This document shows, piece after piece, positions 1 through 11,342 of a stretch of 64,000 nucleotides of DNA. Positions within the stretch are counted from its first letter, which is position 1. Each line of letters starts with the position of its first letter. Made by a program: the position numbers and the translations under genes. The notes below the pieces were generated by a model. That model ran no database searches and was not told where the DNA came from. It was given only the letters and a program-made list of their open reading frames with translations. Source of the stretch: Arthrobacter sp. KBS0703 (GTDB lineage Bacteria > Actinomycetota > Actinomycetes > Actinomycetales > Micrococcaceae); the NCBI RefSeq assembly GCF_002008315.2, contig NZ_MVDG02000001.1, positions 1,116,001-1,180,000 on the forward strand, written 5' to 3'.

Positions 1-1126
1 CGCCGGTCACGTTGGTGGAGACGGACGAGATGCGCGTAATGAGCTTCTGATCGGTCTTGAGCGCGTAGTCCTGTGCGGCTGCGGAGAAGAAGCTGTTCAG
101 GAACTCGGTGTTGCCGAAGTCCGCGTACTTGCGGTCGATCTTCCAGCCACCGGCCAGACGTGCGGCCTCTTCCGAGTAGGCCTCGGTGGTGACGGTGTTA
201 CTAGGAATGTCGGCGAGATCGCCCGCGTAGTCGCCTACTACGGGCTTGGTCAGGAAGCGCCAGCCTTCAACCTTCCAAGAGGTCAGGGTGCCGGGGGTGA
301 CGAGGGAGACGTACTTGCGCTGGTACGGAGCCTTTGACCAAAGCTCCCCCAACCATTCCTCTTGTTCCACGTTGGACTTGTGGGCGGTATTGGTGATGTT
401 GGACAGCGCGGCGAACAGGCTCTGCTCTCCAACGATTCCGGCCTCTTCCAGTGCGGAGGCGAGAACGCGGTCCTTGGTGGAGTAGGCCTTGGCGATTAGG
501 GCAGTAGCGGTGGCGAGGTCCTTGGGAGCCGTAGCGCCACCGTGGGCGGCCTGAAGCTCGGTCGGAACAGATGCGTTTTCGGGCATTTCGATTTCCTTCT
601 CGGGGGGTGTTGATGCGTCGGCTTCTGCCTCAGCGGGTGTTTCCTCGTCGTCCTGTTCCGGAGTGGAGGTAGTTACGGGGAGGTCTCCGAAGTCGGAAGC
701 CACGAGCTGGGCGTCAGCGAACGCGGGACGGACCACGAGACCGGCACCGGAGAGGACTCCGGCGGTCAGGGCTCCGGCACGGATGACGGGGGAGTCAATC
801 TCCACCGAGATGCCGGTGCGGAGACCGGACGCGGCCAGCTCGAGCGCGTCGTTGCCAGCGGACGTGCGGGCAATGGAGACGGTGGCGAAGAGGCCTTCGT
901 CGGTCTCTTCGATGGAGGCGAACTTGCCTACGGGCTGCTTGTAGTCGTGTTCGAGGTTCACCGGCAGTCCGGTGATGTCCTCAGGAATGGTCACGGAGCC
1001 CTTCGAGGCGGTGATCTTTCCGAGGTTGGTGGACCCTGCGGAGCCGTAGGGAAGCAGCTTGTAGGTCAGGGTGCGGTCATCAATTGATGCGGTGAGGAAT
1101 TCACCGGCCACATGGAAGTTAGACAT
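1..1126 (-). CDS. HK97-type prohead protease fused to major capsid protein (3' end outside window)
   Basis: The reading frame is open from ATG 1126 to the left edge (375 codons visible). Residues about 1-150 look like an HK97-family prohead protease, with a catalytic-type His in VNLEHDY and a Ser in LRTGISVEI. An acidic Glu/Asp/Pro/Ala linker follows (about 150-180). The part from about residue 181 resembles a major capsid protein, including YQRKYVSLVTPGTLTSWKVE. The start overlaps the portal stop by eight bases (ATGTCTAA), so translation is probably coupled. The protease would cleave the capsid precursor during head maturation. An in-frame ATG at 586 with a good ribosome binding site could also give capsid alone. 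Confidence 0.85.
   Translation of the reverse strand, partial: MSNFHVAGEFLTASIDDRTLTYKLLPYGSAGSTNLGKITASKGSVTIPEDITGLPVNLEHDYKQPVGKFASIEETDEGLFATVSIARTSAGNDALELAASGLRTGISVEIDSPVIRAGALTAGVLSGAGLVVRPAFADAQLVASDFGDLPVTTSTPEQDDEETPAEAEADASTPPEKEIEMPENASVPTELQAAHGGATAPKDLATATALIAKAYSTKDRVLASALEEAGIVGEQSLFAALSNITNTAHKSNVEQEEWLGELWSKAPYQRKYVSLVTPGTLTSWKVEGWRFLTKPVVGDYAGDLADIPSNTVTTEAYSEEAARLAGGWKIDRKYADFGNTEFLNSFFSAAAQDYALKTDQKLITRISSVSTNVTG
584..599 (-). promoter_or_regulatory. Internal ribosome binding site and ATG inside the protease-capsid fusion
   Basis: On the minus strand AGAAGGA is followed by a 7-nt spacer and an in-frame ATG at 586-584, codon 181 of the fusion. This is exactly at the junction of the acidic linker and the capsid-like domain. 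It would allow a separate capsid polypeptide without proteolysis. Function is inferred. Confidence 0.5.
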
Positions 1127-2174
1127 TCGGAATTACCGGGCTTTCTGTATTACCCTTCGCACTGACGAAGGCATCGAAGAGGGAATAGTCGACGGAAATC
1201 TTGATGCCCGGCGGTGTGCAATCGTCTTGCGAAAGGCGATCCGCCAGTGGCTCGGTCCACGTCTTTAGGGACAATTCGCTAAGCTCATTTCGAGAATCAA
1301 CAGAATTCGCGTAGACCTGACTATTTCCGCCGCCGGAACCGTCCAACATGTCCGCGCTAATTCCGAGGAAGTTGGAGATATCGACGCGGAGCGCGTTGCG
1401 GGCTTCGAGCATCAGGGCGTTGGCTGAGTCGGTGGCTCCGAAGCCTTTGATCTCTAGGCCCTTCGGCTGGTAGACAATGCCGCCGCGCTCGGACTGCAGG
1501 GCGTTGGCGAGGCTTGCAAGCGCCTGATCGATCTCTTCGTCGGTCGGTGCCACGTCCTCGGTCTCGGCGACGATGACGACCGGCTCAGGGGCGGCGGTGC
1601 GGTTGTTGATGGTGCGGACGATGTTGCGGTACTGGCGCACGGAGTCACGCGCAACTTCGAGGAAGCCCGCAGGCATGATCGAGGGGACGTAGACGACGTC
1701 GTCGCTGGAGGCTTTCTTGCCGTTGACGAGGATGTTGCCGTTGGCGTCGAGGCTCCACAGGTGAGCGGGGACGTGGGCGAAGGCTGAGACGTAGCCGTCA
1801 GCGTCGCGTACAACCTGAATGAGGCTCGCGTTGTGAAAAATGAGGTCCTGAATGATTCCGGAGGTGCGCTTGGCCGGGGTGATAGGTCCCTCGGTGTGGT
1901 TCAGGAACGGAAGGTCAACGTCGTTGCCGTCCGCGTCCGTGGCTTTCAGCGGAAGGCGCGAGCCAACGGACGAGAAGATTTGGATGCCGCGCTGGACGGC
2001 GGGAACGGTGAGCGCGGTCGCGGCGTCAACCGGGAAGGCGGACGTGTCCACGTCCGGGAAGATGGCAAGCGCCAGTGTGGACGGGGAGAAGAGGCCCGTC
2101 ACCTGAGAGGACTGGGCGAACCCTGTTGCAGGGTTGTACGCAGCAATGCTTGCTGACTTGGAAAAGAGACCCAA
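1119..2174 (-). CDS. HK97-family phage portal protein
   Basis: About 351 aa if started at TTG 2174, giving MGLFSKSASI..., a typical portal N-terminus. GGAG lies 5 nt upstream of that TTG. An ATG at 2204 would add ten hydrophobic residues and has no clear binding site. The segment AVQRGIQIFSSVGSRLPL matches the conserved N-terminal portal region, and LRVDISNFLGISADML lies in the C-terminal half. The dodecameric portal forms the DNA entry vertex and docks TerL. The stop overlaps the protease-capsid start. It is slightly short for the family (commonly about 400 aa). Confidence 0.85.
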   Translation of the reverse strand: MGLFSKSASIAAYNPATGFAQSSQVTGLFSPSTLALAIFPDVDTSAFPVDAATALTVPAVQRGIQIFSSVGSRLPLKATDADGNDVDLPFLNHTEGPITPAKRTSGIIQDLIFHNASLIQVVRDADGYVSAFAHVPAHLWSLDANGNILVNGKKASSDDVVYVPSIMPAGFLEVARDSVRQYRNIVRTINNRTAAPEPVVIVAETEDVAPTDEEIDQALASLANALQSERGGIVYQPKGLEIKGFGATDSANALMLEARNALRVDISNFLGISADMLDGSGGGNSQVYANSVDSRNELSELSLKTWTEPLADRLSQDDCTPPGIKISVDYSLFDAFVSAKGNTESPVIPNV

Positions 2175-2399
2175 ACTGACTCCAAAGACAAATACGAAAA
2201 GCAACGTTTAGTTGCCTGATGTCGATTTGTCTTTGGTGTCGTGCGTCTCTATGACGATGTCGTTGAGACTGCTTGACTTCCGGCGGTGGCGAATAGGTTA
2301 CCCAAGACGCAACGAGCCACCACCGGAAGCATTAGTTATAAGCCATCATAACTTCCTCAATTATACCCGGGATGAAACCGGCAATTGTATGAAGTTCGT
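2175..2399. other. TerL-portal spacer with a strong hairpin, no convincing gene
   Basis: This 225-base gap lies between terminase and portal. It contains an inverted repeat of 13 out of 14 bases (2277-2290 with 2316-2329, 25-nt loop). Short minus-strand reading frames of 5 and 27 codons exist but lack support. The hairpin could be a processing or partial termination site between packaging and head genes. Confidence 0.5.
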
Positions 2400-3836
2400 T
2401 TAGAAGAGAATCGGACCGCGCTTTCTCCGTGGTTCCTGATGGCGTTTACCGGCGGCAATGTAAAGAGCATTGGCTGCAGCCACCAGCGGGGAAATGTCCG
2501 CGTTGGACTGGCGGCGTCCGAAGAGCCGGGAGTCTCCCGAATACCGGAAGGCCACTTCCTCCGCTGCCCTGTCCAGCGAGGGATCCACCGCGTGCACAAG
2601 GGCGTGGTCGGCGACGTGGGACGTCAGCAGGGAGACACCGGCTGAGACTTCCTTCATGGTCAGCGCACGGAGCCCTGACTTTGGCACGCGTGGCATGCGC
2701 TGCAGGGTCTGGAAGACCGAGAGGTTGTTGCCGATGGAGTCAAAGCCGATCTCAATGCCCTTGTTGTCCGTCAGCAGCTTGGCGATGTAGGCAGGCATCC
2801 ACGAGTAACCGGCCTTGTGGGCGAGCACCTGAACCGAGGGAATCCCTTCCGGCGTGTACCACGCGACGGCGACGGAACCGGCGGAGCCGTCCTGAGTGAT
2901 ATCGAACGAGATGGAGATGTTGGACGCGGGAACGTCCAGCAGTTCCGGAACCTGCGAAGCCAGCCAGTCCTCTTCCGGAATGGCGCGGATGGAGGACGCG
3001 ACAGGGTCCAAACAGAGGAATTCTCGGGAGTAGGAAAGTAGTCCTTGGGTCTCCAACGCCTCCCTGAGGAACTTGATCGGCACCAGTCCGGAGGACAGTC
3101 CGGGGTAGACGGCCTCCCACAGGACCTCATCCGTGGCGTCCTGATCGGGGCGCATGGAGTAGTCGAGGATGCCCATCTCTTCCGAGTCCGTGCGGCCTAG
3201 CTGTAGGTACTTCCACAGCAGCCCATCACGCACCTTTGGGGGAGTGCCGGTGACGATGAGCTGAGCCTGTGGACGTGTGGCGAGCACGGGGATGGCACCG
3301 GCCAGCAGGTCCTCCGTCGTCTTGGCGTCGTACTCTCCCGCCTCGTCAAAGAGGATGCAGTCGGCATAGGAACCACGGAAGGCGGAGGCCTGCGGCTTCA
3401 CTGCCCGCCACTGTGAACCGTTCTCGAAGACGATGCGGATTGAGCCGTTGCTTTTGTAGAAGCGGAAGGGGCGCGTTGCCTCATCCGGCCATGACATTTC
3501 CAGCGTGCTCCCCAGCTCGGCGAGGAACTGCTGTGAAAGCGTTCCCGTCTGCGCCGTCGAGATGATGCGGTAGCCGGGGATGGACAGGCAGCGGCCTAGA
3601 AGCGTGGCCTGAATCGAACTGGTCTTTGTAGCACGCCTACCCATTTGGATGACGGCCTTGGGGTACATCGGGAGACCGTCAGAATTTTTGGCTTCCAATA
3701 GTCGAGCGACTTGCTCACCCTGAGGAAGCAGTGAGATGCCCATCTTCTCGGCGGCCTTGTGTGCCTCTGTGACGTCCGTGTTGTCCGGGATGGGGGAGTA
3801 GAAGCGGGGAATCGCTTTGTAGTCGGCAGCGCTCAT
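2400..3836 (-). CDS. Phage terminase large subunit
   Basis: 478 aa. The ATPase domain has a Walker-A-like GRRATKTSS near residue 67 and a Walker B with catalytic acid in CILFDEAGEYD. The C-terminal half has SISFDITQDGS, consistent with the RNase-H-like nuclease domain, and LTMKEVSAGVSLL. TerL packages DNA into proheads and cuts the concatemer. The start ATG overlaps the stop of the upstream zinc-finger gene (ATGA). No recognisable small terminase is visible; the preceding zinc-finger gene occupies that position. Confidence 0.88.
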   Translation of the reverse strand: MSAADYKAIPRFYSPIPDNTDVTEAHKAAEKMGISLLPQGEQVARLLEAKNSDGLPMYPKAVIQMGRRATKTSSIQATLLGRCLSIPGYRIISTAQTGTLSQQFLAELGSTLEMSWPDEATRPFRFYKSNGSIRIVFENGSQWRAVKPQASAFRGSYADCILFDEAGEYDAKTTEDLLAGAIPVLATRPQAQLIVTGTPPKVRDGLLWKYLQLGRTDSEEMGILDYSMRPDQDATDEVLWEAVYPGLSSGLVPIKFLREALETQGLLSYSREFLCLDPVASSIRAIPEEDWLASQVPELLDVPASNISISFDITQDGSAGSVAVAWYTPEGIPSVQVLAHKAGYSWMPAYIAKLLTDNKGIEIGFDSIGNNLSVFQTLQRMPRVPKSGLRALTMKEVSAGVSLLTSHVADHALVHAVDPSLDRAAEEVAFRYSGDSRLFGRRQSNADISPLVAAANALYIAAGKRHQEPRRKRGPILF

Positions 3837-4330
3837 TCTGTGCCGCCTGCCGGGGAGAGAAAACGAAGGGGCACCCCCGGGACTCGGGAGCCCGCGTCAG
3901 AAAAACCCTTCGAGCCTCCGCTGTTCCCCGCTTCGCTGCACGCACGGCACAGAGCAGAGTAGTCCTTGATGTGTGAAGACCACGTCGTTGTTGTCTGGCT
4001 TCCCTTGTAGCTCGGGCCTGTCTGCTCGTACTCACTGCCACCTCGGTAGCTCCACGTCTCAGCCTGTGCACCACACGGACACACACGTTCGGTGGCCTTG
4101 CCTCGGTAGTTCAGCACACGCCTGAGCGCGGCCTTGCTGGTGCACGGCGTGGTGGGTGGCATGGTGACCGTGTAGAAGATAGGCACCGGGACATAGGTCC
4201 GGCGGGCGTACGCGTTCTTCCGTGCGTTGTACTGTGCACGGTTCTCTTCCCGGTGTCGCCTGCCGTAGCACCTGCGGCACTCGCTGGACTTCAGGATGTC
4301 GACGGTGTCCCCGCACTTGCACTTAGACAT
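3833..4330 (-). CDS. Cysteine-rich zinc-finger protein in the TerS position
   Basis: 165 aa from ATG 4330 (MSKCKCGDTVDIL). Three cysteine clusters are visible: KCKCG plus ECRRCYGR at the N-terminus, VCPCGAQ in the middle, and LCRACSEAG near the C-terminus. Each could bind zinc. The N-terminal part is strongly basic (YGRRHREENRAQYNARKNAYARR), suggesting nucleic-acid binding. The start overlaps the HNH stop by ATGTCTAA and the stop overlaps the TerL start. Its place between HNH and TerL is where small terminases usually sit, so a packaging role is possible but unproven. Confidence 0.65.
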   Translation of the reverse strand: MSKCKCGDTVDILKSSECRRCYGRRHREENRAQYNARKNAYARRTYVPVPIFYTVTMPPTTPCTSKAALRRVLNYRGKATERVCPCGAQAETWSYRGGSEYEQTGPSYKGSQTTTTWSSHIKDYSALCRACSEAGNSGGSKGFSDAGSRVPGVPLRFLSPAGGTE

Positions 4331-4646
4331 GTGCGCCTCCGATACCGGGACGCTGTACCTGCGGCACGGTGCGCACTGCTGCTGGCTTGGCACGGTGGGA
4401 GTTGCCTAGCTTTGCCCCTGCCCGTTCATTGCATGAGCGATGTGCAGGTGCTGTGTTGGAGGGGCTGTCAATCTCCGTCTGTGTCCAGCCCTGCGCCTCG
4501 GCAATCACGCGTGGCACGACATGGTCTGCCTGCCACTGCATCTCGGCGGTGACAATGCGCCCACAGATGGAACAGGGGCTTGGTAGTTGGGATGCTGCTA
4601 TCTTCCGCGCTGCATTGCTGCGCGTACTGGAGTACTTTCTGGGCAT
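4323..4646 (-). CDS. HNH endonuclease beside the terminase
   Basis: 107 aa. HNH features are CSICG (first zinc Cys pair), QADHVVPR (the His-containing catalytic strand) and APAHRSCNERAGAK (Asn and second Cys region). HNH proteins next to terminase genes act with TerL in DNA packaging in HK97-like phages, and that role is inferred here from position. The gene starts the packaging-head operon and is preceded by an inverted repeat and a 15-base motif also found upstream of the primase. Confidence 0.82.
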   Translation of the reverse strand: MPRKYSSTRSNAARKIAASQLPSPCSICGRIVTAEMQWQADHVVPRVIAEAQGWTQTEIDSPSNTAPAHRSCNERAGAKLGNSHRAKPAAVRTVPQVQRPGIGGAHV

Positions 4647-4685
4647 AACGACGCCTATTCATGATCAATGTCATTGCGTCGTTTT
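4647..4685 (-). promoter_or_regulatory. Inverted repeat and shared 15-mer before the packaging operon
   Basis: AACGACGC (4647-4654) and GCGTCGTT (4676-4683) form a perfect 8-base inverted repeat abutting the HNH start codon. The distal arm is part of TCATTGCGTCGTTTT (4671-4685), which recurs exactly at 7060-7074 upstream of the primase leader. It is a candidate operator or promoter element for coordinated control of the two transcription units. Confidence 0.45.
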
Positions 4686-4746
4686 CCCTGTTTCGCCGGT
4701 CAGCATCCGGTTGGGCATCCTGCCCCGTACTAATAGCGCTGTTGCG

Positions 4747-4836
4747 CTACATCTTCTTGAGCCTGCGCTTGGTCAATATAAGCTCCACAATCCGGTGGAG
4801 GCAGGCGGCGTATGCAATTGCTGCGGCCAGTTCCAA
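4747..4836 (-). CDS. Possible 29-aa hydrophobic mini-protein
   Basis: A TTG codon directly abuts the stop of the 80-aa gene and opens a frame of about 29 codons with a hydrophobic stretch (LAAAIAYAACLHRIVELIL) and a basic end (TKRRLKKM). It could be a small membrane protein coupled to the upstream gene. Evidence is only position and composition. Confidence 0.25.
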   Translation of the reverse strand: MELAAAIAYAACLHRIVELILTKRRLKKM

Positions 4837-5079
4837 TTATCTCACCGCCTTTTGCGGTGTCGGGAATTCGCAGGCGGCTACGACTTCCGGTATGGCGTCC
4901 ACCAGATCTTGCAGTTTTTGCATCCGTGCGACGTCGTCACCGTTGCCGAAGATGATGCGGCCCGCCTGCTGTTCGCAGTACCACGGGTAGGGCAAGCCCT
5001 CATCCGTGTGCGTAGGCCATCCGGTGGTGTCCGGCCTCGTGTCGGTCTGAATGATTCTCTCAAAGTAGTGCTCGTACAT
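4837..5079 (-). CDS. Small hypothetical protein of the element
   Basis: 80 aa (MYEHYFERIIQTD...), no recognised domain. It is rich in aromatic and acidic residues and contains one Cys in PWYCEQQ and another in AACEFP. It lies in line with its neighbours, downstream of the iteron region, so it may be the first gene after the replication block. Function unknown; the call rests on its intact frame, orientation and position. Confidence 0.5.
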   Translation of the reverse strand: MYEHYFERIIQTDTRPDTTGWPTHTDEGLPYPWYCEQQAGRIIFGNGDDVARMQKLQDLVDAIPEVVAACEFPTPQKAVR

Positions 5080-5157
5080 TTGCGCTCCTGCGCTAGAAGT
5101 GAAGGGAGCGTCTTTGTGTCATTGTCTGCACGAAATACGTGCAAGTCTGAATGTGCC

Positions 5158-5411
5158 TGAACGTTGCTGACCCCTCAAATTCCGCATGTTCTAGCGGTTT
5201 GAACGTTTGAACGTTCAAAAGTGAAACGAAGGCTGCATTAGAGATCTCTACGGGGTCAGCAACCAATTTCTTCTCTCTATAACCTCTTACAACTAAAAAC
5301 GTTCAAAATATTCAAAGTAGTAGTAGTAGGGGTTAAGTTCCTTATAGATAAAGGGAAGTAGGGCCATCGAAGTCTGAACGTAACCACGTTCAGTCGCGTT
5401 CAGTCTGAACG
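5158..5411. other. Iteron cluster and AT-rich tract: candidate replication origin
   Basis: The hexamer TGAACG or its complement occurs nine times in 254 bases: 5158, 5200, 5208, 5212, 5300, 5375, 5387, 5397 and 5406 (starts). TGAACGTTCA at 5208-5217 is a perfect palindrome. Between the clusters lies an AT-rich stretch (about 5218-5360) with a TAG microsatellite (5317-5330). The array directly follows the primase/helicase gene and overlaps its last codons. In SaPI/PICI islands the origin is likewise an iteron array just 3' of the rep gene, so an origin is the best explanation. Confidence 0.6.
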
Positions 5412-7006
5412 AAATTGCCCATGCTTTCGGCAGGCGTGGTATGAGCGAGACCGTAGACCCGGTATCCGGCGGTGTTGTCAACCTCATAGCGGACTTCCAA
5501 GTGCTTCCGGAAGTCCTTTTTCTTCAAGATGTCCTTCGGCTGGATGGCGTGGCGCATGCAGTACCGGACGTAGCTCTCATGAAGGTTCGTCAGCAGGATG
5601 CTGCGGGACTTCGGCAGGGTCGGCTGGAAGCGCAGAAGGTTGGCCTCAATCTGGGCATCGACGAACTGCAGCGCGGTTGAGTCGGCTTCCCGTTCCTCAC
5701 GTTTGAGGGCTTCCATGCTGTCCGTCTTGTCCAGACCCTCCTCGAGGTAGGTTAGGTAGCTCCACTTCATCCATTCAAGGAAGCCTGAGCCCTCGGCGAC
5801 AATCAGGTCTTCAAGGTTCTCGGTCTCGTCAATGCCCTTCACGAAGGTGTGAGGGAAGTTGACGGGCGCGATACGGGAGAACATGGCGGCGTCGGTCTTG
5901 TCCACCTGCGTGCCCTTGTTCGAAGCCATGAAGATGATGCCCTGCGGCGCAACCGTGGAGGACGCAATGAACTTCTCTTCAATGTCGTAGTCGTCGCCGC
6001 CTGTGTACTGCAGGACAAACTCGGTGTCGAGAGCGACGCGGATTTCGGAGAAGGCCACGTAGCGCCCTCGGCGCATCTTGTAGCGTGCGTGTTCGGGCTT
6101 CCGTGCCCCTGCCACAATGGCGTCACGCGGCGGCGCAACAACGGTGTCAGCACCCTTCGCCAGCCTCTTGACGACGCGGTTGATCATCGACTTGCCGGAG
6201 TTGGTTTCGCCTTGGAGGCTCACCAGCGTCTTTGTGGATACCGGCGAGCCCATGCAGGCAAGCGCTACGGCCTTGGAGAAGAACCGGGCCTGTCCGTCGT
6301 CGGCGATTGACTCACCGAGGAACTTCTTGAGATGCGGGTAGTCGGCACCGGGGGCGTCCGCGATATCCCACATGCGGTACACCGGCCTCCACGGCTCATG
6401 CTTCTTGAGGGTCCACTGCTTGGTGGCGCGTACTTCTTCCATATCGAAGACGCCGTTCCGGACGACAAACCATTGGCGGTCATCCCCGAAGAAGTCCGCG
6501 TCGACGGCCACGGCACGGCTGAGCTTCTCAAGAGTGTCCTTGACGCCTCGGTTGGAGTTCAGAGACCGTGCGTAGTCCTTGACGCCTGCGATGAGGGCAG
6601 TAGTAGAGGCCTTGAGGTCCTTCTCGTACTGGGCAGCCTCAGGGTCCTTGGCCTTCTTGGCCTCGTTCGCCTTGAAGCGAACCCATGACTCAATGAAGTT
6701 GGAGAGGTCCTTGAAGGCGTAGCCGAGGGTATCGATGAGTTGCGTCGGCACGGTGTTGCCGGAGAGTGGTTTGTGAATGACGCCGTTCCAGACGTACCAA
6801 GTGCTTGTCTCGGCGTTGTACCGGAGGCAGTTCGGGATGTGGTTCACAATGAAGTCCGCGCCGTCAGTAGCGTCCTTCGGGGCATTCTCCATCGGAACGC
6901 AGGGGTCGAATGTAGCGAGGCTAAGAGCCTGACCGGCCAGCTCAGCCGCCCACTCTTCAGTCTTGATGCCGTAGGTCTCGATGAGGTATTTGGTTTCTGC
7001 GAGCAT
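5390..7006 (-). CDS. D5/P4-type primase-helicase (SF3 ATPase)
   Basis: 538 aa. The C-terminal half is an SF3 helicase: Walker A GETNSGKS, Walker B region GRYVAFSEI, and the sensor strand IIFMASNKG. Upstream is a D5_N-like region (WRPVYRMWDIADAPGADYPHLKKFL). The far C-terminus (SYVRYCMRHAIQPKDILKKKDFRKHL) resembles the winged-helix origin-binding module of phage/plasmid primases. It should unwind the element's origin, probably the adjacent iterons. No full archaeo-eukaryotic primase domain can be assigned by eye. Its start is overlapped by a 26-codon frame with a stronger binding site. Confidence 0.85.
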   Translation of the reverse strand: MLAETKYLIETYGIKTEEWAAELAGQALSLATFDPCVPMENAPKDATDGADFIVNHIPNCLRYNAETSTWYVWNGVIHKPLSGNTVPTQLIDTLGYAFKDLSNFIESWVRFKANEAKKAKDPEAAQYEKDLKASTTALIAGVKDYARSLNSNRGVKDTLEKLSRAVAVDADFFGDDRQWFVVRNGVFDMEEVRATKQWTLKKHEPWRPVYRMWDIADAPGADYPHLKKFLGESIADDGQARFFSKAVALACMGSPVSTKTLVSLQGETNSGKSMINRVVKRLAKGADTVVAPPRDAIVAGARKPEHARYKMRRGRYVAFSEIRVALDTEFVLQYTGGDDYDIEEKFIASSTVAPQGIIFMASNKGTQVDKTDAAMFSRIAPVNFPHTFVKGIDETENLEDLIVAEGSGFLEWMKWSYLTYLEEGLDKTDSMEALKREEREADSTALQFVDAQIEANLLRFQPTLPKSRSILLTNLHESYVRYCMRHAIQPKDILKKKDFRKHLEVRYEVDNTAGYRVYGLAHTTPAESMGNFVQTERD

Positions 7007-7037
7007 TTCTTACAACTCTTTCAAAAATTAGGTCCAT
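6957..7037 (-). CDS. Putative 26-aa leader peptide overlapping the primase start
   Basis: ATG 7037 follows AAAGGAG with a 5-nt spacer, the best ribosome binding site in the area. The frame (MDLIFERVVRNARRNQ...) runs 26 codons and ends 50 bases inside the primase gene. The primase ATG itself has only a weak GAAAGAG. Ribosomes terminating inside the primase could tune its translation. The peptide itself may have no function. Confidence 0.35.
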   Translation of the reverse strand: MDLIFERVVRNARRNQIPHRDLRHQD

Positions 7038-7059
7038 GCGGACTCCTTTGGTTTCTTTT

Positions 7060-7139
7060 TCATTGCGTCGTTTTTGCATTGCCCTTTGGCCCGAAGGCCG
7101 CATATGCCCCGCTGCACCGTGTTAAAATGAAGGTGCAGC
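7060..7139 (-). promoter_or_regulatory. Candidate control region of the primase operon
   Basis: This interval contains the 15-mer shared with the packaging operon (7060-7074) and a perfect 8-base inverted repeat GCTGCACC (7111-7118) with GGTGCAGC (7132-7139), separated by 13 AT-rich bases (GTGTTAAAATGAA). It could be an operator over a promoter or an RNA hairpin. No repressor gene was recognised. Confidence 0.4.
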
Positions 7140-7224
7140 TTGAACAGTCAGTAAGTTAATCGGCCAAACGTATCTCCTTTCATCTTTCTTTCGGTTCTCT
7201 CTCTCCTGCGAACTCATGTAGGGA

Positions 7225-7254
7225 AGCCCTCGGTGTGGTGCTCGAGGGCTTTTC
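7225..7254 (+). terminator. Hairpin with plus-strand T-run between the 192-aa gene and the primase
   Basis: AGCCCTCG (7225-7232) pairs with CGAGGGCT (7243-7250) and is followed on the plus strand by TTTCGTTT. It lies 20 bases past the stop of the 192-aa gene, yet the T-run suits plus-strand transcription, where no gene is annotated. It may end an antisense transcript, or work weakly in the minus direction. Confidence 0.45.
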
Positions 7255-7269
7255 GTTTGCCCCGAAACT

Positions 7270-7848
7270 TCACCGACGTCCGGCCCGCACTCCGGCCTGT
7301 GCACGGTTGGGGTCATACGGTGTCGCCCATTCCGGGTTTTCCCGGATAGTCAGGCGGTCGTCCACGCCCAAGATGCGGAACAACAGCTTGACGCGCTCGA
7401 GGCTCTCCTGTGACGTCAGGTTCCAGCCGGAACCACAGGCAATGTCGTCGCCCACAGCACCGCGTGAAATGTCATCCAGCACCCACCAGCCGGGACCGTC
7501 CGAGATCTTGAAGAAGGCGGGCTTCTCTCGCAGGTTCCCGAACTTGGCGGCGGCTTTGGTCCACTTGAGGGATTTCCAGCGGGGCGGAATGGGCGCTTCT
7601 CCGTCGACGCCATCCAGTGCGTCGATGTGGAGGGGGGTAATGATGAAGTCGGTCATGGCTTTCCTGCTTTCCGTTCGTGCGATTTCTGCTGTGATGCGTG
7701 CGGTGTTCTCGGCGGCATTGCGGGCAATCTCCGCGTCGCGCTCGGGCTGTCCGGCCAGCCATGCGGCGTAGCCTCGGTTAAAGGTGCCGGGCTCGCCGAA
7801 CTCTTCAATGCCTTCCGGAATCCACGGGCCGTGTGGTGCTGTGCTCAT
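7270..7848 (-). CDS. Hypothetical protein of the element (192 aa)
   Basis: 192 aa with no recognised domain. An N-terminal helical segment (GYAAWLAGQPERDAEIARNAAENTARITAEIARTESRKAM) has coiled-coil character. The C-terminal half (GPGWWVLDDISRGAVGDDIACG) has aromatic and acidic patches. It starts 4 bases after the stop of the 61-aa gene, so it belongs to the early operon behind the integrase. A role in regulation, excision or replication is possible, but nothing in the sequence fixes it. Confidence 0.6.
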   Translation of the reverse strand: MSTAPHGPWIPEGIEEFGEPGTFNRGYAAWLAGQPERDAEIARNAAENTARITAEIARTESRKAMTDFIITPLHIDALDGVDGEAPIPPRWKSLKWTKAAAKFGNLREKPAFFKISDGPGWWVLDDISRGAVGDDIACGSGWNLTSQESLERVKLLFRILGVDDRLTIRENPEWATPYDPNRAQAGVRAGRR

Positions 7849-7852
7849 GTTC

Positions 7853-8038
7853 CTACTGACCTTTCGCGGTCTTCTGTTCCCGGTATTCTTCGTACTTGTT
7901 GATCTCCGCCTGTACCTCGTCGTACTGCTGCTGGCGCTTCTGCAGCAGGCGCTCCGCTGTCTTGCGTTCCCCGTACAGCATGTGCAGCCGCGCCTCGATG
8001 ACTCCGAGGGACGGGAGGCGCTTAGTCGTTACGGCCAT
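7853..8038 (-). CDS. 61-aa coiled-coil protein
   Basis: 61 aa, mostly one predicted helix (EARLHMLYGERKTAERLLQ, then a Gln/Glu-rich stretch). Its start overlaps the end of the upstream 59-aa gene by 10 bases, indicating translational coupling. Small helical proteins near serine integrases are sometimes recombination directionality factors, which makes this pair candidates, but there is no diagnostic motif. Confidence 0.55.
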   Translation of the reverse strand: MAVTTKRLPSLGVIEARLHMLYGERKTAERLLQKRQQQYDEVQAEINKYEEYREQKTAKGQ

Positions 8039-8208
8039 TCGTTTTCCTCCGCTGCCTGCAGTTCGGCTTTCTTTGCATTCAGAACTTCAATCCGGGCGTC
8101 CAGCTCGGCGGCTTTCTTCAAATACTTTTCAAAGGCGCGGGCCTTCAATGCCTCGGTAAAGTTGATTTGCCGCGTGACTTCCATGACCGGGGTTCGTGGG
8201 TGGTACAT
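8029..8208 (-). CDS. 59-aa helical protein, first gene of the early operon
   Basis: 59 aa from ATG 8208 (MYHPRTPVMEVTRQINFTEALK...), highly helical and charged (FEKYLKKAAELDARIEVLNAKKAEL). It overlaps the 61-aa gene. It is the first gene after the AT-rich leader downstream of the integrase terminator. Function unknown; excisionase or regulator are possibilities. Confidence 0.5.
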   Translation of the reverse strand: MYHPRTPVMEVTRQINFTEALKARAFEKYLKKAAELDARIEVLNAKKAELQAAEENEWP

Positions 8209-8348
8209 TTTGTTCTCTCTTTCGTGGGGGCTTGTATTAATACCCTAACAGCGGATTTAAGGCCGGTTGTATGGAATTCAAGAGCTCGAAAAGGTAGACA
8301 AATGTGTATATAAAGCTTTCTTGAAACACTACGAATAAAAGACACAGA
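8209..8348 (-). promoter_or_regulatory. AT-rich leader of the early operon
   Basis: Between the integrase terminator and the 59-aa gene lie about 140 AT-rich bases containing TTTATATACA, TTGAATTCCA and GTATTAATAC on the minus strand. These suit one or more promoters for the early genes. No single -35/-10 pair is convincing enough to choose. Confidence 0.4.
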
Positions 8349-8379
8349 AAAGGCCGGAACCACACGGGCTCCGGCCTTT
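8349..8379 (-). terminator. Terminator of the integrase gene
   Basis: AAAGGCCGGA (8349-8358) pairs with TCCGGCCTTT (8370-8379). On the minus strand it is followed by TTCTGTGTCTTTT. It lies 38 bases downstream of the integrase stop and separates integrase from the early operon. Confidence 0.7.
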
Positions 8380-8416
8380 CCTTACTTACGCTTTGTGATT
8401 CTCATCACATTTGCTG

Positions 8417-9880
8417 CTATTTCAAAAACTCCTTCGGGTGAACCTCGATCTCGGCCATCAGGTCACGGTCGGGATGCCTCGGGCTCGGGTGGCTCGGAGG
8501 CAGGACCACAATGCGGTCAATCATCTTGGCGTAGATTTCCCGCATGATTGCGGCCTCCGCTTCCGTGGGCTCTTCTTCGAGCGAGGGATCGTTCTCCGGC
8601 ACGTCCAGTCCAAGGACCTTGATACCGGCGTTGATGCGTTCCCGGACGGTGGACGCCGGGACAAACTCACCCAACGCGGCCTGTGCCTCATCGAGCACCG
8701 CCTGTGCCGCCGTGATGGCCTCGGCCTTTTCGGCAAGCGTCTTGGCGGAGACGGCGGGAACAATGCGGTTCTCGTAGGCCCACTGCTGGTACCGGCTGTA
8801 GTCCTCAACGGTGCTGTCATGGGCGGTCTGCGCGTCCGCAACGGCGGTCTCGGCGGCGGTCTTCGCCTCGTCGTCGGAGGGCATGGCATCGGCCCATTCC
8901 TGCTGGTGCTTGTGGAGCCAGAAGCGGAACTTCTTCATGACAATCTCGCGCTTGCGGAAGGTGCCGGGGCATCCGGCCTTGCCCTGAGCGTTGTACGTCG
9001 AGCACGCGAGGCTCGGGACGCCGCGTGCCATGTGGGAGAGCATCTTGCTGCCGCAAAGGCCGCACACCACGAGGCCCTGGAGCATCCACTTCGTGTTACG
9101 GGGGCGTGCGTGTGTCTTCCTTGTCTCCCGCGCCTTCCGGTACGCCGCCCACTGGGCCGGAGTCAGCAAAGGCTCATGGGCACCGGGGAAGTCCTGACCT
9201 TCGTAGGTGATGAACCCCGCATAGAAGGTTTTATCCAGTAGGTCAAAGAGTCCGTTCGGGTACCACCCGGCAGGACCGGCAGAGGCAAGGCCGCGTGCGG
9301 TGAAGTCCTCGCAGATGGCGCGTGAACCTTCGCCCGCCGTGTATCGTGCGTAGGCCTCCCGGACGATAGCGGCGTCGGCGTTCGGGATGTAGGCATCCTT
9401 GCCCTGCTTGTCATATCCGAACTGCGGCTTGCCTGACGGCGGCAAACCGCGCTCCAGTCGGTAGACAAGTGCGTTCCGCCACCGCTTCCCCATCTTCCGG
9501 CTGAAGTCAGCGTCGATGATGAATTGGATGGCGGTAGGCAGGTGGTTCGTGTCTTCGTCATAGACACCTTGGCTTGCGCTGGCAAGCTGCATGCTCCCCA
9601 ACATGGCGAGGCCTTCTACCTCGTTGCGTGCGAAGCGTGACCAGTCGTCGGCCACGACGACGTCAAAGTCGCCGTTCTCGTAGTCGGCCCGCAAGCTAAG
9701 GTAGCCGGGCCGGTTGGCAGTCTTCTTACCTGATATATCGATGTCTTCGTACGACTTGCTGACAAGCTGCCAGCCTTGGCGCTGAACGAAGGCTTCACAG
9801 TTGCGGCGCTGGAGGGCGGGTGAAATCGTGCCTTCGGAGGTTGTCGACTGCCTGACGTATATGGCTGCTTTCGTGGTCAT
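8417..9880 (-). CDS. int: Large serine recombinase (phage integrase)
   Basis: 487 aa. The N-terminal resolvase domain shows AAIYVRQST with the likely catalytic Ser, the Arg-rich ADDWSRFARN, and DADFSRKMGKRWRNAL in the long helix. The recombinase domain follows (GKPQFGYDKQGKDAYIPNAD). The zinc ribbon has CGLCGSKM and later ACSTYNAQGKAGCPG. A coiled-coil tail follows (about 330-430). Length and order are typical of phiC31/A118-type integrases, which join attP to attB without host factors. The start lies about 20 bases from the element end, inside comM, identifying comM as its attachment target. Confidence 0.93.
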   Translation of the reverse strand: MTTKAAIYVRQSTTSEGTISPALQRRNCEAFVQRQGWQLVSKSYEDIDISGKKTANRPGYLSLRADYENGDFDVVVADDWSRFARNEVEGLAMLGSMQLASASQGVYDEDTNHLPTAIQFIIDADFSRKMGKRWRNALVYRLERGLPPSGKPQFGYDKQGKDAYIPNADAAIVREAYARYTAGEGSRAICEDFTARGLASAGPAGWYPNGLFDLLDKTFYAGFITYEGQDFPGAHEPLLTPAQWAAYRKARETRKTHARPRNTKWMLQGLVVCGLCGSKMLSHMARGVPSLACSTYNAQGKAGCPGTFRKREIVMKKFRFWLHKHQQEWADAMPSDDEAKTAAETAVADAQTAHDSTVEDYSRYQQWAYENRIVPAVSAKTLAEKAEAITAAQAVLDEAQAALGEFVPASTVRERINAGIKVLGLDVPENDPSLEEEPTEAEAAIMREIYAKMIDRIVVLPPSHPSPRHPDRDLMAEIEVHPKEFLK

Positions 9881-9905
9881 AGCTAATTGTCACATATAGG
9901 GGGAG
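9881..9905. other. Right attachment junction (att) within comM
   Basis: comM coding sequence resumes at CTG CCG GAC (9906), equivalent to the LP(D/E) of the family's conserved VGLP motif. The codon before it is GAG rather than the expected Gly, and an in-frame TAG at 9897-9899 closes the frame, so the crossover lies within about 9890-9906. The core cannot be defined without the left junction or an empty site. Confidence 0.65.
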
Positions 9906-11342
9906 CTGCCGGACGCGTCGCTCAACGAAGCCAAGGAACGGATCCGTTCGGCTGCCCAGAACTCCGGCATTCCGCTGAGCCGGCGGAAGATCACTGCCAA
10001 CCTCATCCCCGCGTCGCTGCCCAAGCGCGGTTCCGGTTTTGACCTGGCGATTGCCATGGCCACGCTGCGCGCAGCGGATGACATCAGGACCACGGGGCGC
10101 ACGGTCTTCATCGCCGAGCTCGGCCTGGACGGCCAGCTTCGGCCAGTCCGTGGCGTGCTCCCGGCCGTGATGTCGGCCGTGCAGGCCGGGTACACGGACG
10201 TCGTCGTCGCCCAGGCCAATGCCGCTGAGGCGGCCCTCGTACCCGGCGCGCGGGTCCAGGGATACAAGACCCTCGCCCGGCTCGCCTTCGACTTCGGGGC
10301 CGATCCCCAGGAACTTGCCCTCGATTTCGAGCCGGAGGATGAACCCGCCGGGGACGACTCCGAATCCGTTGGCGTGGGCGTCCCGGACATGTGTGACGTC
10401 TCGGGCCAGGGAGATGCGCGCAGGGCCCTGGAGGTGGCCGCCGCAGGCGCCCACCACCTGCTGCTCACCGGTCCCCCCGGCGCCGGCAAGACGATGCTGG
10501 CGGAACGGTTGCCCGGGCTCCTTCCCGATCTCGGCGATACCGAGGCGATGGAGGTTACGGCCATTCATTCCCTGTGCCAGCTCCGGTCGTCGTCGCTGCA
10601 GCTGGTCCGTCGCCCGCCCTTTGAAAATCCCCATCACACGGCGACATCAGCGGCCATCATCGGCGGCGGCTCCGGACTGCCGCGGCCCGGTGCAGCGTCC
10701 CGCGCGCACCGGGGGATTCTTTTCCTTGATGAGGCGCCGGAGTACGAGCGCCGCGTGCTGGACGCACTCCGGCAGCCCCTCGAGAGCGGTGAGCTTGTGA
10801 TTCACCGTTCAGCAGGCACCGCCGCCTACCCGGCACGCTTCCAGCTGGTCCTGGCGGCCAACCCCTGCCCGTGCGGCAAAGCCTCGGGTAAGGGCGTCGA
10901 ATGCACCTGCACGCCAACGATGCGTCGCAGGTATCTGGCGCGGATGTCCGGACCGTTGCTTGACAGGGTGGATATCCAGTTGCAGGTGGACCGGGTTTCC
11001 CTGGCGGACTTCGGTCAGTCCGGGGGAGAAGAGGACACCGCGACGGTCGGAGGGCGGGTCCTTGCCGCCCGGGCGCGTCAGCTGCAGCGGCTTCGTCCGC
11101 TCGGCATGGAAACCAATTCGCAGGTGCCCGGAAGGGTGCTTCGGGGCGACTTGCGGCTCACGCCGGCGACCACTCGCATCCTGGACCATTCCCTCGAAAG
11201 GGGCGTGCTCACCGCGCGCGGCTATGACCGCGTACTCCGGCTCGCCTGGACGCTGGCCGATCTCGGCAGCAGGGACCAGCCGGACGCCGACGACATCGGA
11301 CAGGCACTGAGCCTACGCCAGGTTGCTTCGGCAGCCGCCTGA
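9900..11342 (+). pseudogene. comM: comM (YifB, Mg-chelatase-like AAA+ helicase), 3' part separated by the element
   Basis: The frame from 9900 matches ComM from about codon 37 onward (LPDASLNEAKERIRSAA...). It has Walker A GPPGAGKT, the conserved GILFLDEAPEYERR, and a C-terminal sensor region. The Lon-protease-like N-terminal part is cut and must lie beyond the left window edge. ComM is a hexameric branch-migration helicase that extends heteroduplex during natural transformation, partnered with DprA and RecA. A downstream ATG at 10056 could give a 428-aa ATPase fragment. dprA follows after 11 bases. Precise excision should restore the gene, so this is an interrupted rather than decayed gene. 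Confidence 0.88.

What the first reader, a model, noticed from the sequence alone, without database searches (positions are those of the whole stretch)
1..9900. phiRv1-like, possibly tail-less phage satellite in Arthrobacter
Serine integrase, SF3 primase, iteron origin and a compact HNH-ZnF-TerL-portal-protease/capsid module all run in one direction. No repressor, tail or lysis gene is visible in 9.9 kb. This matches phiRv1 of M. tuberculosis and the logic of capsid-forming PICIs, which make their own heads and borrow tails. A complete description of one in Arthrobacter would be new to me.
Basis: partly seen in the sequence, partly recalled or inferred. Interest (0 to 1): 0.85.

Follow-up and report, generated by a model that had tools for sequence, protein, structure and literature searches.

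The report
Complete mini-prophage without lysis genes
The window's edge cut a 16.7-kb Arthrobacter prophage in half: it does encode a full head and tail, but it and its integrated relatives show no recognisable gene for bursting the cell, so they may depend on another phage to get out.

Summary
Bases 1-9906 are the right 60% of a 16,658-bp element inserted in comM. The listed genes are real, but "tail-less" is an artefact of the window edge. Left of base 1 lie adaptor, terminator, tail tube, tape measure and three minor tail genes, then attL. The head-tail module is collinear with the small Arthrobacter phages BlueFeather and Berka. What is missing is lysis: 8 of 8 such isolates opened have an annotated endolysin after the tail genes; here none is recognised by Pfam, PHROGs or NCBIfam, and no repressor either. 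Ten loci form a lineage (serine integrase seen in nine). In the 7 whose tail-side end could be read, host-like DNA follows the last tail gene within 1.5 kb, and no endolysin was found. The lineage is divergent, mosaic, under purifying selection and uses at least three insertion regions, which argues against simple decay. All ten, and three Decurro-like serine-integrase elements, share a TATAAT 23-42 nt after TerL (2 of 47 other loci). Best reading, about 45%: a satellite-like phage that makes its own virion and borrows lysis. Main rival (40%): an autonomous mini-prophage with an unrecognised lysis system. Nothing was tested experimentally.

The parts
1..9914 (-). right part of the element; the whole is C1:1109248 (attL core) to window 9906-9914 (attR core), 16,658 bp core to core, GC 60.1% against 66.4-66.6% in the flanks
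   Evidence: junctions
9906..9914 (.). attR core CTGCCGGAC inside comM; attL core CTGCCTGAC at L008:1248-1256 (about 6.75 kb left of base 1)
   Evidence: same comM codon (GLPD^ASLN) used by G441, G454 and (right junction only) IMG2721; comM reads through this point in L086, L088, L090, L091 (4 of 11 loci in which my pattern was sought; in 7 the pattern was not found)
8417..9880 (-). large serine integrase, 487 aa; 46-56% identical (MAFFT) to the integrases of three other elements in comM
7853..8038 (-). 61-aa ORF, unknown; found only in this element among held loci
7270..7848 (-). 192-aa ORF, unknown; no Pfam, PHROGs or NCBIfam match, found only in this element among held loci; single-sequence model useless (pLDDT 41)
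5390..7006 (-). P4/D5-type SF3 primase-helicase, 538 aa
5158..5411 (.). iteron-like array: 9 TGAACG motifs, probable origin (inferred)
4837..5079 (-). 80-aa ORF, unknown
4323..4646 (-). HNH endonuclease, 107 aa; 37-41% identical to BlueFeather and Berka HNH
3833..4393 (-). Cys-rich ORF of up to 186 aa (start uncertain), unknown function, 33-48% identical in L034, G493 and Cellulosimicrobium (L025)
2400..3836 (-). large terminase, 478 aa
2276..2365 (-). TerL-portal leader: TATAAT at 2360-2365 (the only TATAAT on either strand of the 64 kb), then a 15-bp hairpin at 2276-2330; a second predicted hairpin lies just before the portal gene
1119..2204 (-). portal, up to 361 aa
2..1126 (-). protease-capsid fusion, 508 aa, continuing to L008:7600. 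Further left in L008 coordinates (window = L008 - 8000): adaptor 7234-7569, terminator 6845-7240, major tail protein 6422-6832, g167 5913-6416, tape measure 4047-5909, minor tail 3298-4047, 2138-3295 and 1661-2122, TM + coiled-coil ORF 1291-1617

Best explanation
A complete small siphophage-like element of an integrated lineage. Shown by sequence: it sits in comM between attL and attR; it encodes a serine integrase, a P4/D5-type primase-helicase with an iteron-like array, HNH and TerL, a whole head and a whole tail; no endolysin and no repressor is recognisable. Inferred: the integrase excises it, the primase-helicase replicates it from the iterons, the head and tail genes are expressed from the TATAAT leader between TerL and portal, its own terminase packages it into its own virions, and release relies on lysis by a co-infecting or co-induced phage. 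It would then work like a satellite that borrows lysis (and perhaps its trigger) instead of heads or tails.
For: Head-tail genes collinear with BlueFeather and Berka. 8 of 8 FE-type isolates opened have an annotated endolysin or lysin A right after the minor tail genes, or after one hypothetical gene in that position. In 7 of 7 lineage members whose tail-side end could be read (this element, G433, G441, G454, G442, G493, G198), host-like DNA follows the last tail gene within 0-1.5 kb; three of these ends are comM junctions, the other four are inferred from host-like genes, no att repeat having been found there. 72 otherwise unexplained ORFs of 90 aa or more from nine elements (one ORF counted twice through overlapping loci) matched no cell-wall hydrolase in Pfam at E 0.01, while 3 of 3 added endolysin controls did. 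tblastn with six endolysin queries found none inside the lineage's elements. Not decay: 6 gene trees put the lineage in one block (portal, g167) or two (TerL, capsid, MTP, tail385), with conflicting nearest neighbours, i.e. exchange; dN/dS 0.13-0.29 in the 8 of 10 head-tail gene pairs for which dS was not saturated; at least three insertion regions.
Against: No helper was found: in G000 portal family PF04860 and TerL family phrog_2 hit only this element; PF03354 hit nothing, not even this element, so it is a weak test. The helper would have to be an incoming phage or of an unsearched type. Absence of a match is not absence of a lysin: the 192-aa and other orphan ORFs are unexplained, and the tail proteins of the other members were not scanned for fused hydrolase domains. 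A 108-aa membrane + coiled-coil ORF stands where free relatives keep holin and membrane genes (weak PHROG 'Rz-like spanin' match 1.4e-4, possibly coiled-coil bias), and a 74-aa hydrophobic ORF occurs in IMG2721, which hints at lysis functions. One endolysin-type hit lies on the Soil762 contig, about 5.5 kb outside the integrase end; I read it as host DNA, but that element's outer end was not mapped. The element carries its own replication and tail genes, unlike the satellites in the passages read. Nothing was tested in a cell.
Confidence: 0.45

Rival explanations
1. An autonomous temperate mini-siphophage with a lysis system and a repressor too divergent to recognise. It would induce, replicate, package and lyse by itself, for example through the 108-aa membrane protein and the 192-aa ORF.
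For: All other phage functions are present. The 108-aa ORF has a hydrophobic stretch (peak 1.81; four holin/membrane proteins of Berka and BlueFeather 1.7-2.2) in the lysis-cassette position. Integrated Decurro-like serine-integrase elements (L029, L032, L081) do carry an endolysin homologue just upstream of HNH (Pfam M23 in L029). The 192-aa ORF could not be modelled.
Against: No candidate is shared: the 192-, 61-, 80- and 108-aa ORFs occur only in this element among held loci. In G433 the unexplained same-strand ORFs of 90 aa or more are only 104 and 118 aa long and match no family. The elements would need several different unknown lysins.
Confidence: 0.4
2. A decaying prophage that lost its lysis cassette (and repressor) after integration and no longer moves.
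For: One relative, G441, is visibly broken: its capsid gene is interrupted by an rve-type transposase gene. Loss of the lysis region is a plausible first step of decay (general knowledge).
Against: The head-tail ORFs here are all open; dN/dS is 0.13-0.29. Loss would have to be repeated or ancestral: members without recognisable lysis genes differ from this element by about 29-78% protein identity in head-tail genes, have recombined and sit at several attB regions.
Confidence: 0.12
3. One reading: a phiRv1-like or cf-PICI-like satellite that makes heads and borrows tails.
For: Serine integrase, SF3 primase, HNH-TerL-portal-protease/capsid, no repressor seen.
Against: Terminator, tail tube, tape measure and three minor tail genes are present and collinear with complete phages.
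Confidence: 0.01

Closest known systems
Small Arthrobacter phages of FE type (BlueFeather 16,302 bp; Berka 15,178 bp; Whytu, Corgi, Noely, Idaho, Yavru, Piku; the label FE-type for all eight is mine)
   Same: Genome size; HNH next to TerL on the circular map, then portal-protease/capsid-adaptor-terminator-MTP-tape measure-minor tail; 24-45% protein identity to BlueFeather and Berka for most genes.
   Different: They have endolysin and HTH or other DNA-binding genes, 7 of 8 an annotated holin or membrane gene beside the endolysin, and no annotated integrase. BlueFeather is judged not temperate by its authors (PMC7954295, passages read). The element has integrase and SF3 primase, no recognisable lysis genes, and a TATAAT leader that these eight lack.
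Temperate mini-phages with tyrosine integrase (Gordonia phage Emperor; two loci in G160)
   Same: Emperor is 16.6 kb; same structural plan, integration functions.
   Different: Emperor is annotated with immunity repressor, lysin A and lysin B; the G160 loci have Emperor-like tyrosine integrase and endolysin homologues.
Capsid-forming PICIs
   Same: Integrated, own packaging and head genes.
   Different: cf-PICIs depend on the helper for tails (as described in PMC10690885); this element has its own tail.
Streptomyces satellites MulchRoom and MiniFlayer (PMC10690885; parts 1-3 of 6 of the text read)
   Same: 14.8 and 17.4 kb actinobacterial satellites with own capsid and packaging genes.
   Different: They lack primase homologues and go with virulent helpers; this element has a primase-helicase and a full tail module.
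phiRv1 / mycobacterial PICI-like elements (PMC10654092, passages read)
   Same: Integrase (serine in phiRv1) and phage capsid gene in a small integrated element.
   Different: phiRv1 is about 9-10 kb without tail genes (recalled, not tested here); this element is 16.7 kb with a tail.

Membership tests
Complete small siphophage/prophage | integration module with att sites | tested here: met
   serine integrase and comM attL/attR
Complete small siphophage/prophage | packaging, head and tail genes | tested here: met
Complete small siphophage/prophage | endolysin/holin | tested here: not met
   none recognisable; an unknown type is not excluded
Complete small siphophage/prophage | repressor of lysogeny | tested here: inconclusive
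   no HTH family match among its orphan ORFs; homologues of four free-phage repressor-type proteins not found in the lineage
Capsid-forming PICI | own capsid, portal, connector, HNH and TerL | tested here: met
Capsid-forming PICI | no tail genes; tails come from the helper | tested here: not met
   tail module at L008:1661-7240
Capsid-forming PICI | own small terminase subunit | tested here: inconclusive
   no TerS match; the Cys-rich ORF between HNH and TerL is unassigned
Phage satellite (functional definition) | depends on a helper phage for release | not testable with these tools
   needs induction and co-infection
phiRv1-like element | serine integrase + primase + capsid in one direction | tested here: met
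   (order compared with recalled phiRv1 only)
phiRv1-like element | no tail genes | tested here: not met
   (the feature of phiRv1 is recalled)
Arthrobacter phage cluster FE | shared structural gene content | tested here: met
Arthrobacter phage cluster FE | lysis cassette and HTH/Rep module, no integrase | tested here: not met

The most novel reading that the evidence does not exclude
A class of actinobacterial phage satellites at the far end of the dependence spectrum: elements that integrate, replicate, package and build both head and tail by themselves, and borrow only cell lysis (and perhaps induction) from a helper. They form a divergent, recombining lineage, mostly seen in Arthrobacter, marked by a shared TATAAT-plus-hairpin leader before the portal gene.
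Probability: 0.4. Interest if true: 0.8.

Novelty: new variant of a known kind. Interest (0 to 1): 0.6.

Why it matters
The satellites described in the passages read lack structural or replication genes. [quoted passage not shown] An element with every other phage function but no recognisable lysis gene would isolate that single dependence, and would blur the line between small prophage and satellite. If instead it lyses on its own, it must use a lysis protein not recognised by the three family libraries searched. Either outcome is testable in a soil bacterium. It also warns that structural completeness alone does not make a prophage autonomous.

Tried and rejected
Tail-less/cf-PICI reading: rejected once the sequence left of base 1 was read. 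Resident helper prophage: PF04860 and phrog_2 hit only this element in G000, PF03354 nothing; other phage types were not searched. The 192-aa ORF as hidden endolysin: no family match, no relative among held loci, single-sequence model pLDDT 41, so no fold search was made; undecided. Shared 10-mers upstream of HNH as a cos site: best word in 4 of 9 elements, nothing convincing. att repeats at the four non-comM elements tried: nothing convincing. Rfam on the element: 2 matches up to E 5, both far below gathering scores. A MAFFT alignment of ten leader hairpins did not line up the 3' arms, so no covariation count was made; the hairpin claim rests on single-sequence folding, and free phages also have stable hairpins in this gap (no z-scores made for them). 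Literature: the listings (109 found none; in 90 'comM' also matched words beginning with 'comm') showed no title or abstract start reporting these elements, or satellites with their own head and tail but no lysis genes; many subscription papers and all bioRxiv preprints are not held.

Rows dropped or limits: one search took ORFs of 90 aa or more from 12 loci (nine elements): 304 ORFs, 117 with homology to the named gene set (which includes this element's own orphan ORFs), 72 kept, 115 dropped because more than 70% of each lay inside a homology-supported ORF. Some of the 72 are host or duplicate ORFs. The tail end of Soil762, the outer end of IMG2721 and most of L034 were not available. In one search only 25 of 46 PHROG families were shown; its endolysin and peptidase families had 2 members each, which equals the two M23 controls, but the members are not named there. 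dS was saturated for two of ten head-tail gene pairs. Leaders: 12 of 13 were analysed for stems (not L034), 10 of 12 folded against shuffles (not G441, G341).
Full report
The window is G000:C1:1116001-1180000. The iteron-like array is real as a cluster: 9 TGAACG motifs in 290 bp, against 36 in the whole 64 kb.

The element does not end at base 1. Reading left (L008 = C1:1108001-1127000), the same gene row continues through adaptor, terminator, major tail protein, a 167-aa protein, tape measure (620 aa), three minor tail proteins and a 108-aa ORF with one hydrophobic stretch and a coiled coil. Then comes comM. The att cores are CTGCCTGAC (L008:1248) and CTGCCGGAC (window 9906), 16,658 bp apart; GC is 60.1% against 66.4-66.6% in the flanks. 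Three other elements whose integrases are 46-56% identical sit in comM at the same place: G441 and G454 with both junctions seen, IMG2721 with one. comM reads through this point in 4 of 11 relative loci in which I sought it by pattern; in 7 the pattern was not found.

Relatives with the same virion. BlueFeather and Berka carry the same genes in the same order. Identities are TerL 38-41%, portal 35-36%, capsid 40%, adaptor 36-38%, terminator 35% (Berka only), tape measure 31-40%, first two minor tail proteins 24-45%; the last tail gene matches BlueFeather only over its first 40 residues (47%). Capsid relatives occur in 87 phage records; the 40 listed are 14.6-17.1 kb long. The head-tail module is therefore that of a complete small siphophage, which refutes 'tail-less'.

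What is missing. In 8 of 8 FE-type isolates opened, an endolysin or lysin A follows the minor tail genes, or one hypothetical gene in that position; in 7 of 8 an annotated holin or membrane gene comes next (Idaho has only hypotheticals there). Here the tail genes are followed only by the 108-aa ORF and attL. The orphan ORFs (61, 192, 80, 108 aa and the Cys-rich one) match no hydrolase or repressor family; the 108-aa ORF has weak coiled-coil-type matches, among them PHROG 'Rz-like spanin' 1.4e-4.

Is that peculiar to this copy? TerL hits at E 1e-20 or better occur in 10 of 206 genomes of the genus: 8 of this lineage (G000, G433, G217 [its contig length equals that of Arthrobacter sp. Soil762], G441, G442, G454, G493, G198) and 2 Decurro-like (G341, G486). 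Two further members come from IMG/VR (L035 = IMG2721, in comM; and the partial L034, on which no integrase was seen). IMG/VR also holds this very element as a 16,220-bp UViG (L033). In the 7 members whose tail-side end could be read, host-like DNA follows the last tail gene within 0-1.5 kb. This element, G441 and G454 end in comM. G433 ends at a gene with a single-strand-binding-protein domain; G493 and G198 end near the same kind of host genes (by eye, and DNA-alkylation Pfam in G198); G442 ends beside a type II secretion gene. No endolysin was found: 72 unexplained ORFs of 90 aa or more from nine elements gave no hydrolase in Pfam, while 3 of 3 added controls did. The one endolysin-type tblastn hit on a lineage contig lies on Soil762 about 5.5 kb outside the integrase end. 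By contrast, three Decurro-like serine-integrase elements (L029 in G341, L081 in G486, L032 in G020, the last of another genus) carry an endolysin homologue upstream of HNH (Pfam M23 in L029), and the tyrosine-integrase loci in G160 have endolysin homologues.

Decay or lineage? Quick maximum-likelihood trees put the 9 members with usable sequence (8 for tail385) in one block for portal and g167, and in two for TerL, capsid, MTP and tail385. This element's nearest relative changes from gene to gene: Soil762 for TerL, G454 for capsid, G442 for tail385. That is exchange among members. dN/dS (Nei-Gojobori) against near relatives is 0.13-0.29 for 8 head-tail gene pairs, with dS saturated in two more (TerL and MTP against Soil762); HNH 0.18, integrase 0.25, primase 0.52; several dS values are above 1 and so rough. 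One member, G441, has a capsid gene interrupted by a transposase. Some trees carry long-branch warnings.

TerL-portal leader. In all 10 loci of the lineage and the 3 Decurro-like serine-integrase elements a TATAAT lies 23-42 nt after the TerL stop, in 11 of 13 as TGnTATAAT (not here, not in Soil762). Among 47 other distinct loci with a TerL it occurs in 2 (L056, L059). Two more distant serine-integrase elements, in Cellulosimicrobium (L025) and G679 (L136), are among the 45 without it, so it is not a mark of all such elements. It is the only TATAAT on either strand of the 64 kb. After it, 10 of 12 leaders analysed have an uninterrupted 10-16-bp stem of different sequence in each. Ten leaders tested fold better than shuffles at z -4.1 to -7.4. 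In several, a second predicted hairpin lies against the start of the portal gene. Free phages also have stable hairpins in this gap, some followed by T-runs like terminators, so the hairpin alone is not special. This is a candidate structured leader or attenuator; function unknown, no covariation test done.

Mechanism. Shown by sequence: integration site, gene content, no recognisable lysis genes in the members examined, selection, exchange. Inferred: excision, replication from the iterons, late expression through the leader, self-packaging into own particles, release by a helper's lysis. I put the helper-for-lysis reading at 0.45 and an autonomous phage with an unknown lysis system at 0.40, because absence of a database match is weak evidence and no helper was identified.

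Against what is known. cf-PICIs make heads and borrow tails; MulchRoom and MiniFlayer make heads and lack primase homologues (PMC10690885, parts 1-3 of 6 read). Candidate mycobacterial PICIs, among which phiRv1 and phiRv2 are counted, were defined by integration machinery plus capsid gene (PMC10654092, passages). BlueFeather is reported as not temperate, with lysin A and holin (PMC7954295, passages). A survey of actinobacterial prophages suggests that many elements under 15 kb may be satellites (PMC10023795, passages). None of the passages read describes an element with its own head, tail and replication genes but without lysis genes. I therefore call it a new variant of a known kind (mini-siphophage or satellite spectrum), not a member of cf-PICI or phiRv1-like elements, since the no-tail feature was tested and not met.

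Noticed in passing
window 2276-2365 (minus strand); TerL-portal gaps of 13 loci: Shared TATAAT 23-42 nt after TerL, usually followed by a strong hairpin whose stem differs in sequence in each element; 2 of 47 other loci have the TATAAT.
   Followed up: partly
G452:C1:780156-780584 and 841370-842239: comM of another genome of the genus is split by about 61 kb at a different position of the gene, so comM may be an insertion target of other elements too.
   Followed up: no
L076:12174-13214: rve/HTH_38-type transposase gene inserted in the protease-capsid gene of the comM element of G441.
   Followed up: partly
L030 (G160:C74, 16,981 bp) and L031 (G160:C45): One genome of another genus of the family has two Decurro/Emperor-like mini-prophage loci with tyrosine integrase and endolysin homologues.
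   Followed up: partly
L029, L032, L081: Decurro-like serine-integrase elements carry a homologue of the peptidase gene of Decurro's two endolysin genes, upstream of HNH; no homologue of the amidase gene was found in them.
   Followed up: partly
L008:4047-5909, C-terminal third: The tape measure protein ends in about four near-tandem repeats (VDVDDNxTVxxVQxRIxxIxGRD-like), seen by eye in the translation.
   Followed up: no
L083, L139, L027: Three lineage members (G433, G493, G198) lie beside the same kind of host genes (SSB domain in G433; DNA-alkylation repair in G198, similar ORFs by eye in the others), suggesting a second shared attB region.
   Followed up: partly
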